Shown in pieces: positions 32,791 to 64,000 of a stretch of 64,000 nucleotides of DNA. The notes beneath the pieces are model-generated. The model saw only the letters and a list, made by a program, of their open reading frames with translations, searched no databases and was not told the DNA's origin. The stretch lies in NCBI GenBank assembly GCA_019843655.1, contig JACDQD010000008.1, forward strand, positions 13,426,442-13,490,441. Reading direction: 5' to 3'. Every line of letters begins with the position of its first letter. Positions within the stretch are counted from its first letter, which is position 1. The translations under genes and the position numbers were made by a program. This stretch comes from Lethocerus indicus (taxonomy: Eukaryota > Arthropoda > Insecta > Hemiptera > Belostomatidae).

Positions 32791-32987
32791 AACTGATAAC
32801 AACCTCCCTTTTTTCCTCCCCTTCTCAATAAAACCGATCCATTAATTTAACCCGGTCTCGATTGGTTTCCCATCGACTCGAGTGCGGGCCCTCGTTCGGG
32901 TTTAACGCGCGAAGAAAACAAGTTTGGCTTGAGATAATTGTATAGAAGAGACTCTTTCTGCAACAATCCTTTTGTAATATAACAAGA

Positions 32988-33114
32988 CACTTTGAATACC
33001 TAGTTTTGTGGCCTGCGAGGGGTTGGAATACCGCAGATTTCGTCTGTTTCTGTCTCCTCCTTTTGCTAGAGCAAAAAACCAGCGAGAGGAGACGGAAACA
33101 CACGAAATCTGCGG
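32988..33114. mobile_element. Short hairpin-ended mobile repeat, copy 1
   Basis: This 127-bp segment is flanked by the perfect 10-bp direct repeat TATAACAAGA (32,978-32,987 and 33,115-33,124). It consists of a left part containing GAATACC and TGCGAGGGGTTGGAATACC, then a hairpin at its right end. The arms are 33,028-33,059 and 33,086-33,117, 32 bp with two mismatches. The loop contains a second small perfect hairpin (TTTTGCT/AGCAAAA, 33,061-33,076). It is about 24 bp shorter than copy 2 because part of the left arm (the counterpart of CAGCGAGAG) is lost. It has no coding capacity. Confidence 0.8.
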
Positions 33115-33538
33115 TATAACAAGATGTCATTCAATCGTAATAAGTCCAAATTTTATGTACAACTGCGGAATGCTTTAATGCATGCTCCCGATAATGAGCC
33201 CTCCCAGTGATAGCACTTTTGGACGTGTCCCTGGACTATAGACCGCGGAGATCCCTTTTGATGTCCATATTAGTAATGGTTCAAACCATGGGATTTCTTA
33301 AGTCGTTTGTGTTGTTGCTGGGTGGAGGTAGATATATTGTTAAATAATTGTGAAAGTGGCGACATTTTCAATTAACGCGGAAATCATTCAGTAACCCATA
33401 ACCGGGATCCGACTGAGCGGATGTTCATGCTGGAACTATTGAAGGGAGCATTATCGGCGGTTAATGAATAGTGATCGAAAATCATACTATATTATACTAA
33501 ATCCGTGCGCACAGTCAAACTAGCACCCTAAATTTTAG

Positions 33539-34646: not shown

Positions 34647-34748
<102 letters not shown>

Positions 34749-37700
34749 CTGCTGGGTTTTTTCAGATCATTCTATTTTCTGGGTGGCTTTTGTGAACGTT
34801 CTACTCTCAATGCTGCCGTTTTTTTCGGGAACACGAATTTTCCGAACCACATTTTAAAGTTATCCGACTGTATTTAAAGGACCGCTGGATCCGTTGCCGC
34901 TGTGCGATCCGCGTCATTCGGCCGGCTCAGTTCGCGTTATGAACACGACTTGAATGGGATTTGAATTGGTATCGGAATCCGATATTCCGAGATGGGAACA
35001 TCCACCGGGACCCGCGGAGTGTGATTCGGGTACAACAGGAATGGAACGGGGTGAAAAAAATATGAAAGGGAGAATCCGGGCGAGCTTTAGTCGGCCTCTC
35101 CGCTAAACAATGCGCCGATACGCGTTATACGTTTTGAATACAAGCCTGCATGGTTGTCTCCTGTACCGGTTAAACGATTAAAATCATCTCATTTCATTCG
35201 AACACTTTATAATCCTCAGTCTTTATGTCAATAATTTTGATTGCCCATAATTGAGTTTCGAAAATAGTGTCGATGTAAACGAACTAAGTTGTTCTTTGTT
35301 ATATCTTGTAGTCATTTACAAAAACCTTTCTGAAAAGAGAATGTTCCAAGTATAAGATAATCGATGGGGATCGACGAGGGCTTAGTGATCGGTCGTGATG
35401 CTATTTCTGTCTTAATTGTGGATAGTACCAATCATTTGTGTAGCGACATTTTCGACAGGATGTTTTATTGATTGTAACCTCACTGTAATACTAACGGAAT
35501 TTACTTAGGAAGCCGAAAAAGGCTCGACTGCTGGAGAAAGTACTAGCACAGATTGTGATTTTTCTTGTGTTCCTTCGCCTACTTTCTTGTTTGGCTAGAT
35601 CACTTTTTGTCCCCCCCCCCAATCACGATTGGTCGTATTTACTCAAAATTATTTCATCATATAGTTGTGTTCACCACTCTAATCTTCTGTCCTGTAAAGC
35701 GATCCTTCTGCAAAGTAGTAGATGTGATTAATACTAGAACCGTTAAACTGAAAATGTGAATAATGATTGCGAAACTTATAAATAATTATTGAAACGTTTC
35801 GTGAAGCCGTTTTCAAAGGAGCTCCTCAGCCTAGTTTAAATTCTGAACGTTCTTTACAAAGGAGGTAACAATGGATTTGAAATATTTGGCCGGCGATTTG
35901 AAGCCGGAGTTCATCATTGCCGTTTCGTTCGGGAATCCTCCCTCGGATTGCTTGCTGCTCCCTATTCAAGTCTGTACTAATAATACTGGGGCGGGCGGGG
36001 ACTCTCACCTCGCGTTCTTCATTACAGCCGAGCCGGGCTTTAGAAAATGAATGAATGGGCCCAGCCGTTCTGCACAAGCTAGACGTTGTCAGCCAATGGC
36101 AGTGAAGAATGAAAATGTAGGATGCTTAAGGTAAAACATGTAATTACAGTGAATTTAGGATACCCGATCGCAAGAATTATGTTAATTACAGTGCTTCATA
36201 GGCGACAAGCTTACTGTAACCGAATTCGAAATCCTGACTGTTATATTTTAGTTTAATTGGGTACAAATAGGACACCAGAAAAGACAAGTATCTAATAAGG
36301 GCTTGAGCAGGAGCCCTTAAAATTGCACTAATTATAATTTTTAAAATTGTATTCGTGGCTTAAAATAAAAATAGAAAAAAACACCATGAAGTAGGATGTG
36401 CTAGGGACGTGGTAGGGAGTACTGTTCCACATTCGGCTTTGAGGAACCATAGCAGCTCGTTTGACAGAGCTATACGAAACTGCTGTACAAATAACAAAAC
36501 AGGCGGCTTTTCGAACGGGTCGTCCCCCCCGAGTGTTTCAAAATCCCGAGAGTGCCTCTCTCTGTTCCCACCACCATCACATCACCATGAAGTACGGACA
36601 GAAACTAACCGTATTTCCGGCTCTTCTGGTGTAAAGTTTTTCCGCCGGCTTCAAAACAACCCCCGTACAGCACCCTAATGGTGTGCAAACCCAAGTTCGG
36701 AGAAGTTTCGGGTCTCGGCCGGTTCGGTACGACGGCGATTGAATCCGCCCAACTCCGGGTCCTTTTGTTCGAATTAAAATGATTAAGTATCACGCGAGGC
36801 CTTCGCAATTACAGAACGTCCGCTGTTTCAATGGACCTTTACCCTCTAATTCACGGCTGACGTGGTAGAGTCGAACCGACATTGGTATCCATTTATCGCC
36901 ACGTTGGAAACTCTGCGCTTTAGCCTCTCATCTTGCAGCATGGAAACTTGAAGCATCCGTTACTTCAAATGGAACCGAACGCGGACAATTATTCATTTCA
37001 TAACTCAAAATGTAGGTTAAATATAATAATTTTCCAACTTGGGATATACGTTTGAGTTTTATTTTTCTACCTAACTATACCCTGTATAAAGACTATGTAC
37101 TGAAACCGGTCTACCACTTATTATTCTTGAATGGCTATTCTGGATGTAATAATCTCGGAAAAGTCGAATGAATATTACGAATGTGACGTGACAACGTAAG
37201 GGGACGCTTGAATTTATTGAGCATAGGTATACAACATACTACATATGTCATTAGAATACGGTCGAGTAAAGTAATTTAATTATATTGAACCAATTTCCAA
37301 AACCGTTTTCAACACTCGCAAAGGCCGGCGTTGAATTTCACCCTTTCAATTTGTTAAGTAACAGGCAACAATAAATTGACATTATGAGGCAACGATAATT
37401 GGCAGGCAGTAATTATGCCCTCTGATTTCCAATTTGAAACACTCAATAATTCGTGAAATTACATGGATATTAGTTTTATTTTGCAGAGTAAAATTCAGTT
37501 TTCAGGTTGAACAAAATAAAATCTTAGGTTACTATATCAGCTGCCTTTCAGTCTAAATAAGTGTTTGAACAAAATATCATCTTCTAATTATAATTCAGGC
37601 AATAGATATCTCAATGGGGTTAACCGATTAAAAATTTGTAATAACGGCGAAAGAGAAGGCCGAGAGGATTTCAGAAGATAGGAGAGTTTTCAGGAAAGTC

Positions 37701-61275: not shown

Positions 61276-61311
61276 GAGCATATATATATATATATATATA
61301 TATATATGCTC
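61276..61311. repeat. (TA)n microsatellite inside a palindrome
   Basis: A TA run of about 28 bp is bounded by GAGCA on the left and TGCTC on the right, so the whole 36-bp unit is self-complementary and could form a cruciform or hairpin. It encodes a spurious Ile-Tyr repeat on the minus strand. Confidence 0.85.
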
Positions 61312-63830
61312 CTTGACTCTCTAGAACCTTGTCACCGCTGATTTGTGTGTGTACTCGGTCGGATTTGGCTTGTGGCCAACCCCTCGGTAACTTTTCTTTA
61401 GGGGTTAAAGTGGGGTACATGCGCAAATCTGTCGATGAAACACCCTTCAAGTACTCTATATATGATCTATTAATTTTTTTATCATACGCGGTTTTATATT
61501 TCTTTCGCAAATAGAAAAAATGCGCTGAAAATTTGGAAGTAATTGATGAAAACATACGCCCTCAAATATCATGGCCCCTCATGCATTCTAACCTAATGAC
61601 AGGGACGTCTGTGACAATCGGGTAATGAAAAGTAGGATACAAACGTACACAAGGTGAACAGGTTCCTCGGCCAAATTCCGACCGATCGGAGATGAGAATA
61701 AATATTCGGGTATTCAAACGAGGCGATAATAAAAATGGATGAAAATGATTTATATACTACTAAAACACTGGTGCAGCGACAACGCTTACACGATGTATTT
61801 TCAGCAGATGTTTAAGTTATTAAATTACGGCCCATTGTCAGTCTATTACCAAATCACTGTATTAGGACCAATTAGGCCGCTGTAAACAGAAGATTGATGA
61901 TATTTAAGCTGTCCTTCTGTAGCCAGTGGCGCATTAGTCGCAAAGGTTTCGAGGCCAATTACGTCACGGCCCACGCACATAACCCACTTCCGAACGCTGA
62001 CTGCCCACCAGCTTCTCCTGAAACATTGGGTTAAGCCCAGCGTTGTGTAATCCGAACACCCGATTGTTTAGAGTTTAATTAACAATTGTTAACCAATATA
62101 CAACCGCGGAGTCTCGCGCCTACTCTTTCAACTTGACACCGTTAATGTGACCTTTGCGCGAATTCCAAATTGGACACCCGGTTATAATTTGATTTTTCTT
62201 TTATAATGGCCTTTTTTCTAGTCCTACTGGGTCAGATTAGCGTGACCAAGAGATATTAAATAGTAGCAAGTGCTGACAAGACAGCTACCTATAATACTGC
62301 TTCGTATCTGATCATTGCCTAAACAATTTGATGAAAATCACAAAAGTTGCTAATAAGAGACACGTTTCATCTGACTGTGTTAGAACGGTAATTATTCGGT
62401 AGAGGCACTGCCGACTTGATGCTTTGGAGGCAATCCACATCATTAAGAACGTCGTTATACTTTTGTACTTTCTTTCCCTTTATTCGTGCAGCCTGTTGAT
62501 CTTAGAAATAAGCTCGAAGGTAATAACGCAACAAGTAATGAGATACAAAACAAAAATCATATTTGTAAATAAATTTGCATTAACGATTAAAGTGAAATTA
62601 TAATAGGCATTCGTGTCTTAAACTTAAATTCAGTCTTGTACTCGGGCTTTAACATATAATAATTGTATCAGGTCAAGCGGTTATGGCCTTAAATCGTGTT
62701 ACCCTACTTCATTATATGTTGGATATACTAACATAAGATGGTGGAGAGTAATAAACATAATTCGTACAATAATAACATAATACTAACAGTGGCTATCGGC
62801 GATATAAATAGATTAAATCAGCACTTTGGCTTTTGCAGAAATCGGTTATTGTTTAGGTACTTTTTAAATATTCAACTGTATCCTGCAATTTGAAAATACT
62901 GTATAAAATGTAATATATGCATAGCGTTTTCTCCTAAAGAAAATTGTATTACTTTTCGTACCACCTCCTTTGGCATTATGTGCATTGCATGAATTTACCA
63001 TTTCCCGCCCCAGTGTTTCAATATCAAAGAAACAAATGGTCGGGTCGGCGTAAGGAAGCAAAACCGTGTCGACAATCTCCGAGAAAAGGGTAAAAATATA
63101 CTTAAAATATAAATGAAACGGGTGAAACGGGCAGCGGGGGCCGGTACTCTGGAAATTGATAGGTTTCGTCAATTTGAGGTCTGGAAGGGCGCCGGGGTTT
63201 TTGTCCTGACGTAGTGGCCCGCATTAGGGGAGGCCCCCGGCGGGATCTGTCCGGAGAATATGCGAAAATCTGCTCCATTTATCTGACTAAATCGCCCCAT
63301 TTTTTTTTCCACCCCTACGGCGGTGGCGGGACCGTCCCGCATAAAATATAATGTTCCTCCTTCCCCGGGGATATAAATCGGTCTGGACAGTGGGGGGGGG
63401 GCCCCGACTGAGTGGCCCGTCCCTTCCGATTTTCTTTATAGTCGTTTTCGACGATTGCGGTTCAATATTGTCCCTCCTGACATTCCCTCCGGAACGCGTG
63501 GATGGGGGGTGTGTGGATCCTGCCCGCAAGGCCGGAAGATATATCGGTTCTCCGGCCTGCGTATCACCAGCCCGAATGTATCATCCTGCCTCTCGGGGCG
63601 GCCCCGTTTATTAAATATAAAGAGAGGCAACAAATCTCATAGACTATATGAACCTCGTATAATACATAAGCCGCTATTGTCTAATTAATCAACTATCGCC
63701 GGACGTTCATTTGTATCGGTACATAGTATTATCTAAGCAATTATTCTGTGAAATAAAATTTTTGCCACGTTTGCGAAGCTATTGGTTCACCGACCATTAT
63801 TTATTGGCAATGAATATCGTATAACATTAA

Positions 63831-63980
63831 TTTAGAATACCTGTTTTGTGGTTTGCGAGGGGTTGGAATACCGTAGATTTCGTGTGTTTCTGTCTCCTCT
63901 CGCTGGTTTGATCTTTTGTCTTTTTTTGGTCACAAAAGACCAAACCAGCGAGAGGAGACAGAAACACACGAAATCTACGG
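63831..63980. mobile_element. Short hairpin-ended mobile repeat, copy 2
   Basis: The better-preserved copy of the repeat at 32,988. It is flanked by the direct repeat TATAACATTAA (63,820-63,830 and 63,981-63,991; 12 bp if the preceding G is included). After a left part sharing GAATACC and TTTGCGAGGGGTTGGAATACC it forms a hairpin with perfect 43-bp arms (63,868-63,910 and 63,941-63,983). A further TCTTTTGT/ACAAAAGA pairing lies in the loop. The hairpin abuts the right flanking repeat, while about 37 bp of unpaired sequence precede it on the left, so this is not a symmetrical inverted-repeat transposon. It has no open frame. Confidence 0.85.
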
Positions 63981-64000
63981 TATAACATTAACGTAAATAA

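What the first reader, a model, noticed from the sequence alone, without database searches (positions are those of the whole stretch)
63819..63991. Hairpin-ended mobile repeat with TATAAC target duplications
Two copies 31 kb apart share a conserved left segment and a long right-end hairpin (43/43 and 30/32 paired). Each is flanked by its own direct repeat (TATAACATTAA here; TATAACAAGA at copy 1). The flanking repeats differ after TATAAC but match perfectly within each copy, which is what a target-site duplication of about 10 bp at a TATAAC-containing site predicts. The asymmetry (unpaired 37-bp head, hairpin touching the right junction) does not fit an ordinary inverted-repeat MITE. Mutator-like foldbacks make 9-11 bp duplications but should be symmetrical, and retrotransposed RNAs usually leave an A-rich tail. 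The mobilising enzyme is unknown to me.
Basis: partly seen in the sequence, partly recalled or inferred. Interest (0 to 1): 0.75.

Follow-up and report, generated by a model that had tools for sequence, protein, structure and literature searches.

The report
Fold-back copies of a Penelope retrotransposon
The hairpin with matching flanks is one of many short, gene-less copies of a Penelope-type retrotransposon, and its lopsided shape looks like the trace of two copying reactions that started at the two sides of the same cut in the DNA and were then joined.

Summary
In detail: both window copies have a ~38-41-nt head, a long hairpin reaching the right junction, and their own direct repeats. The 427-Mb eukaryote assembly has 4716 matches to the 46-nt head end (control 0; inflated by duplicate contigs). 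This is not an unknown DNA transposon. The head is the 'tail' and the arms are inverted pseudo-LTRs (pLTRs) of a Penelope-like element (PLE): pLTR and tail lie upstream of PLE reverse-transcriptase matches (L126, L128), and the pLTR follows RT plus a GIY-YIG-like stretch in L045. Among 80 tail-selected copies, 40 could be scored at both ends: flanking repeats (score >=8) occur in 24 versus 73 of 1560 mismatched pairs, none with TATAAC. The inner ends of the arms are uncorrelated and none of 780 copy pairs shares a junction; 2 of 57 have two tails. Best reading: both target nicks prime reverse transcription, at two sites ~40 nt apart on the RNA, and the cDNAs are joined. PLE origin is firm; the mechanism is inferred. 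No empty site was found.

The parts
63820..63830 (.). Target-site duplication, left (copy 2)
   Evidence: Exact repeat of 63981-63991; up to 12 bp with the preceding G
63831..63868 (-).
   Evidence: The same sequence follows the pLTR and runs on towards the RT in L126/L128; 4716 matches together with the arm start
63869..63919 (-). pLTR arm A, contiguous with the tail (element sense = minus strand)
   Evidence: Inverted repeat; pLTR reference 94% identical over 173 columns to L045
63920..63931 (.). Junction (loop) between the two arms
   Evidence: junctions differ among the 40 scored copies
63932..63982 (+). pLTR arm B, tail-less, ending ...CTACGGTA
   Evidence: arm B ends at pLTR coordinates 150-161 in 38 of 57 sampled copies with an arm B
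63981..63991 (.). Target-site duplication, right (copy 2); its first TA is also the end of arm B
32978..32987 (.). Target-site duplication, left (copy 1)
32988..33028 (-). PLE tail, copy 1 (diverged)
33029..33059 (-). pLTR arm A, copy 1
   Evidence: D2, I3
33060..33075 (.). Junction, copy 1
33076..33116 (+). pLTR arm B, copy 1
   Evidence: D4; aligned to pLTR 118-158
33115..33124 (.). Target-site duplication, right (copy 1); its first TA is also the end of arm B

Best explanation
Each copy is a gene-less, doubly 5'-truncated insertion of a Penelope-like element. The PLE protein cuts both strands of an AT-rich target with a stagger of about 10-13 nt. Both 3' ends prime reverse transcription on element RNA, inside the RNA and not at its end: one at the outer edge of the tail, the other at the pLTR end about 40 nt upstream. 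The two cDNAs run towards the RNA 5' end, stop independently, and are joined head to head; gap filling makes the target-site duplication. The hairpin is thus a by-product of copying the same RNA stretch from both sides, and the one-sided head is the distance between the two start sites. Shown here: the anatomy, the duplications, PLE genes with the same pLTR and tail, the independent inner ends and the tail asymmetry. Inferred: dual priming, two RNA molecules, end joining. (PLE origin about 0.95, dual priming about 0.6.)
For: PLE identity: L126 has pLTR+tail (93% over 169 columns) upstream of the RT match at C8:19191446; L128, upstream of the RT match at C8:10889609, agrees with it at 95% over 939 columns from within the pLTR through and past the tail. 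L045 has RT motifs and VYKIACGSCDGVYIGQTGR (GIY-YIG-like) followed by the pLTR at 94%. L044: RVT_1 E=3.3e-10, then pLTR end and tail 30/30. 68 PLE-RT matches from 112 candidates, all 112 scored. Duplications: 24 of 40 versus 73 of 1560 mismatched pairs; 27 of 57 versus 1.6% of 3192 in an overlapping, partly similarity-selected set. Inner ends: |a-b|<=10 in 5 of 40 versus 4.85 expected by permutation; 0 of 780 pairs share both ends within 3 nt; two tails in 2 of 57. Tail-bearing exact pLTR ends are 1420 of 3132, so both kinds of end are common. In vitro an anole PLE cleaves and extends both strands and starts at two adjacent internal RNA sites that bound the tail (PMC11167929, parts 1-2 of 4 and passages).
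Against: 16 of 40 copies show no duplication at score 8. No empty site: the 13 joined sites matched only their own filled loci and duplicate contigs. PF01541 found nothing genome-wide (0 of 3 candidates) and did not score on the L045 ORF, so the endonuclease rests on a motif and a 64-aa alignment. In vitro the start sites did not differ between strands (PMC11167929), whereas here one end of each kind is the rule. Arm B seems to stop before coordinate 145 in 15 of 57, so that start is not exact. Window copy 2 is itself symmetric. The PLE genes found are broken and of a related subfamily; one of three upstream stretches (L127) had no pLTR match.
Confidence: 0.7

Rival explanations
1. Self-priming: a single cDNA or antisense transcript folds back on itself and is extended, giving a head-to-head inverted repeat (proposed for Adineta vaga Penelope, PMC3846280 discussion).
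For: Published proposal. Arms of one copy agree more than permuted arms at five polymorphic sites (69 of 97 versus 0.616 on average; about 1% of 2000 permutations as high), so both come from the same or related RNA. Window copy 2 has equal arms.
Against: Fold-back predicts equal inner ends; they are no closer than chance (5 of 40 within 10 nt versus 4.85 expected). Arm identity within a copy (mean 0.870, n=28) equals that between copies (0.869, n=1231), although later mutation would also blur this. It does not explain the tail on one side only.
Confidence: 0.15
2. Centre deletions: insertions start as long symmetric inverted repeats and lose their middle afterwards, as palindromes do.
For: Would also give copy-specific, unequal inner ends (general knowledge of palindrome instability; no call).
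Against: Does not explain how the inverted repeat arose or the one-sided tail. The sample was chosen by an exact 46-mer, which favours young copies, and shows no shared junction and no excess of equal ends. Not excluded.
Confidence: 0.12
3. DNA transposon fold-back (Mutator/FB type) or MITE moved by a transposase.
Against: No fixed unit; ends are asymmetric; the ends belong to an element with a PLE RT. No transposase search was run.
Confidence: 0.02

Closest known systems
Penelope-like elements with inverted pLTRs and tail (Adineta vaga Pen2a and others, PMC3846280; passages and discussion)
   Same: Inverted pLTRs, a 31-bp tail on one of them, 8-10 bp duplications, a microhomology junction in one copy; here a ~38-nt tail
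   Different: Here gene-less fold-backs, truncated independently in both arms, are abundant; the host is probably an arthropod
Anole Poseidon PAc in vitro (PMC11167929; parts 1-2 of 4 and passages)
   Same: Internal start of reverse transcription at two sites bounding the tail, in an AC-rich stretch; cleavage and extension of both strands; AT-rich targets
   Different: In vitro no difference in start site between strands; here the two genomic ends are nearly always one of each kind. The passages read do not discuss inverted pLTRs
LINE-1 5' inversions by twin priming (mechanism recalled; only its title seen, in the reference list of PMC4245944)
   Same: Two primers at the two nicks copy RNA and the cDNAs are joined
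   Different: In L1 the second priming is upstream on the same RNA and the arms do not overlap (recalled); here both arms copy the same stretch, which needs two template passes or two RNAs; no poly(A)
Metazoan retrozymes (PMC7229834; passages)
   Same: Small gene-less retroelements suggested to depend on PLEs, with hammerhead ribozymes
   Different: Retrozymes occur as direct tandem units expressed as circular RNA; these are fold-backs, and the hammerhead-like motif here is unverified

Membership tests
Penelope-like element (as gene-less derivative) | PLE reverse transcriptase carried by elements with the same termini | tested here: met
   L126 and L128 (pLTR+tail upstream of RT matches), L044 and L045 (RT then pLTR); 1 of 3 upstream stretches (L127) had no pLTR. 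16 of 17 homologues of the L044 RT carry RVT_1. No RT tree was made.
Penelope-like element (as gene-less derivative) | GIY-YIG endonuclease | tested here: inconclusive
   Motif VYKIACGSCDGVYIGQTGR...RYKEH in L045; 64-aa alignment to P0016, whose residues 247-323 match PF01541; 2 of 4 rescanned homologues match PF01541, one below the cut-off; Pfam silent on L045; 0 of 3 candidates genome-wide
Penelope-like element (as gene-less derivative) | pLTRs, direct in tandem or inverted | tested here: met
   pLTR twice, ~1.69 kb apart, in the tandem array L045; inverted pLTRs in the copies
Penelope-like element (as gene-less derivative) | Short tail on one end, internal to the element RNA | tested here: met
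   ~38-nt tail; sequence continues past it in L126/L128 at 95%; two tails in 2 of 57. No RNA was examined.
Penelope-like element (as gene-less derivative) | Target-site duplication of variable length in AT-rich DNA | tested here: met
   24 of 40 versus 73 of 1560; these 24 are 79% AT, the window 61%
Penelope-like element (as gene-less derivative) | Hammerhead ribozyme in the pLTR | tested here: inconclusive
   Motif GCUA-CUGAAGA-U-GGC..GCC-GAA-ACC-GGU-C-UAGC in 61 arm segments (49 distinct): 92% of cells paired versus 13-36% slid, but only 4 double changes, 3 compensating. Against: an extra U at the base of stem II; L045 reads ACAGGU and L126 ACCGGGU at stem III; no hammerhead reported by Rfam at E<=1 in 8 loci. 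Absent from the two window copies.
Mutator-like or other fold-back DNA transposon / MITE | Symmetric terminal inverted repeats and a common unit | tested here: not met
   One-sided tail; 0 of 780 pairs share a junction
Metazoan retrozyme | Direct tandem hammerhead units | tested here: not met
   Arms are inverted, not direct

The most novel reading that the evidence does not exclude
PLE integration is a symmetric two-ended reaction: a dimeric RNP carrying two RNAs nicks both strands and starts one cDNA at each of two fixed RNA sites in an ordered, one-of-each way. The tail, the inverted pLTRs and these fold-backs would all be products of this one reaction, and the thousands of fold-backs its natural record.
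Probability: 0.45. Interest if true: 0.65.

Novelty: new member of a known kind. Interest (0 to 1): 0.5.

Why it matters
How PLEs integrate, and why they carry inverted pLTRs and a one-sided tail, is unsettled in the papers read (PMC3846280 discussion; PMC11167929 parts 1-2). A genome with thousands of very short PLE insertions, whose two ends and junction can be read together, turns that into a countable question: the sample here already disfavours simple self-priming and favours priming from both target strands.

Tried and rejected
Rfam on 8 loci gave microRNA hairpin models only, all below their gathering scores, mostly on the near-perfect stem. A duplication scan without anchoring the right end was noisy (10 of 40 at score >=9 versus 16 of 200 mismatched pairs), so the end of arm B was used as anchor. 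Comparing arms within and between copies does not separate the models well, because later mutation dominates. An excess of arm ends at the hammerhead-like cleavage point is weak: 6 of 120 ends at 104-108 and 10 of 120 at 101-108; ends upstream of about 0 depend on the reference used. Duplicate contigs could not serve as empty alleles: where both window copies were looked up they are filled in C8 and C99 alike. Host: one COX1 fragment in nuclear DNA, best named hits 85-88% to true bugs, flies and a prawn (120 of 7955 listed), so arthropod, probably insect, unproven. Literature searches for fold-back or twin-primed PLEs listed no title or abstract start describing this reading; most listed papers were not opened, and Cervera 2014, Schostak 2008 and Craig 2021 are not held.

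Full report
The sequence. The two window copies were confirmed: a ~38-41-nt head, an arm, a short loop, and a complementary arm that touches the right junction, inside short direct repeats that match within a copy. The window lies in a 427-Mb assembly of 209 contigs (G000:C8:13426442-13490441). A search with copy 2 scored only 40 of 2096 candidates and listed 81 matches. A 46-nt pattern over the head and arm start has 2335 + 2381 matches with at most 3 mismatches, control 0 + 0. Some contigs (C99, C100, C123, C133, C144) repeat blocks of other contigs at constant offsets, so this count is inflated by an unknown part.

What the ends are. Long copies (in L031-L043) show that the arm goes on into a longer sequence with the motif CTGAAGATGGCGAGCAGCCGAAACCGGTCTAGC. 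This, the duplications and the one-sided head suggested a Penelope-like element (PLE). PLEs are described with inverted pseudo-LTRs (pLTRs), a short tail on one of them, and 8-10 bp duplications (PMC3846280, passages and discussion), the tail being bounded by two internal start sites of reverse transcription (PMC11167929, parts 1 and 2 of 4 and passages). A composite PLE reverse-transcriptase query, typed from recall, found 68 matches (112 of 112 candidates scored). Stretches at five of these places were fetched. L045 is part of a tandem array with ~1.69-kb units: RT motifs, a GIY-YIG-like stretch, then a pLTR 94% identical over 173 columns to the reference of the fold-backs. L044 has an RT segment (RVT_1, E 3.3e-10) followed by the pLTR end and the tail, 30 of 30 nt. 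L126 has pLTR and tail, 93% over 169 columns, upstream of its RT match, and L128 agrees with it at 95% over 939 columns, from within the pLTR straight through the tail and beyond. L127 gave no pLTR match in the 3 kb fetched. So the tail lies inside the element. These genes are broken and belong to a related subfamily (L044, L126 and L128 read CACGAACCTACAG or close to it instead of CACGAAATCTACGG); an intact source of the window subfamily was not found, nor sought exhaustively.

Target-site duplications. Of the 100 exact matches listed, all on C1-C4, I fetched 80 (L046-L125). An arm B was located in 57; in 40 of them its outer end lies at pLTR coordinates 145-165, in 15 before 145, in 2 there is a second tail. 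The 24 matches are 8 to 18 long, 17 of them 10-14, the longest including chance extension. The other 16 show none at that threshold. In an overlapping set of 57 (32 of the first 40 sampled copies, 24 of 26 non-duplicate loci, and window copy 1; 10 dropped for lack of a right arm end) 27 reach 9 against 1.6% of 3192 pairs. TATAAC or its complement is in none of the 24 (32 nt at the arm-B side), but CGGTATAAC does stand at the right junction of L008 and L013 as well as of window copies 1 and 2. The 24 duplications are 79% A+T, the window 61%.

Independent arms. For each of the 80 copies I measured how far arm A (with the tail) and, where found, arm B (without) reach upstream in the pLTR. In the 40 with a clean arm B the two reaches are not significantly correlated (Spearman 0.24, p 0.14), lie within 10 nt of each other in 5 copies where permutation expects 4.85, and no two copies share both reaches within 3 nt (0 of 780 pairs). 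So these fold-backs are not copies of one master hairpin; each junction arose in its own copy, at or after insertion. Two tails were seen in 2 of 57 (L046, L082), which may be neighbouring insertions. Genome-wide, 3132 exact pLTR ends include 1420 that run on into the tail; this is rough, because mutation and early-ending arms remove members of both classes. If the two ends were drawn independently at such frequencies, many more two-tailed copies would be expected among tail-selected copies.

One RNA or two. At five polymorphic sites the arms of a copy agree in 69 of 97 comparisons, against 0.616 on average for permuted copies (about 1% of permutations as high); rarer changes of arm A are shared by the own arm B in 8 of 116 against 2.9% elsewhere; overall identity is the same within (0.870) and between copies (0.869) (47 arm B used, two extractions dropped; an earlier, less careful version gave 0.879 and 0.883). 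The arms thus come from the same or related RNAs, and a single self-copied molecule is not required by the data.

Mechanism. Two primers, one at each nick of a staggered cut, each copying element RNA from a fixed internal site, and joining of the two cDNAs, account for the outer ends, the one-sided tail, the overlap of the arms, the free inner ends and the duplication. The in vitro findings that an anole PLE cuts and extends both strands and starts at two sites bounding the tail (PMC11167929) supply the single steps, but not the order: there the start sites did not differ between strands. Self-priming (PMC3846280) predicts equal inner ends and is disfavoured as the general route, although window copy 2 alone would fit it. 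Centre deletion after insertion is not excluded.

Hammerhead. The motif in the long pLTR fits C3-U4-G5-A6-N7-G8-A9, G12-A13-A14 and three short stems, with one extra U at the base of stem II (core numbering recalled). In 61 segments (49 distinct) 92% of cells pair against 13-36% for slid partners, but most copies are close to each other and only four double changes occur, three compensating. The motif of L045 and of L126 departs from it in stem III, and Rfam does not report it in 8 loci. The short window copies end before it. I treat it as hammerhead-like and untested; PLE hammerheads are described as atypical minimal type I (PMC7229834, passages).

Limits. No empty site, no named host, no RT tree, no transposase search, weak endonuclease evidence, and a sample chosen by an exact tail match, which favours young, tail-bearing copies.

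Verdict. A known class of element (PLE derivatives) in an instructive, very abundant form. The identity is firm; the proposed two-ended integration is the most interesting part and is testable.

Noticed in passing
G000 contigs C99, C100, C123, C133, C144 versus C3, C4, C8, C9: Match positions in these contigs mirror those of other contigs at constant offsets (five C8/C123 pairs all sum to 11079360; L040 and L043 are identical over 8748 nt), C99 carries blocks of both C8 and C4, and C144 shows at least two blocks of C4: the assembly holds redundant sequence.
   Followed up: partly
G000:C1:10484780-10508735 (L045 is part): 14 PLE-RT matches about 1.7 kb apart: a tandem array of degenerate PLE units; the two units compared in L045 are 99% alike and hold an inverted piece of the RT region.
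   Followed up: partly
L069, L085, L104, L106, L108 between the arms; L031 near 6950: Another repeat (of the type AAGTTCGTTGGGTGCACTTGCACCGATAAACTAGCGCCCCC) recurs at the fold-back junctions; it may be an upstream part of some subfamily or a captured repeat.
   Followed up: no
G000:C2:2338820-2339434 (L129): Nuclear COX1 fragment with five TGA codons, a likely mitochondrial insert.
   Followed up: partly
L126 about 1-1533 and L128 1-1551; L044 about 1440-2230 and L127: The PLE parts sit beside long tandem-repeat (satellite-like) stretches of two kinds.
   Followed up: no
window 34684-34753 and 61277-61313: Long (AT)n tracts.
   Followed up: no
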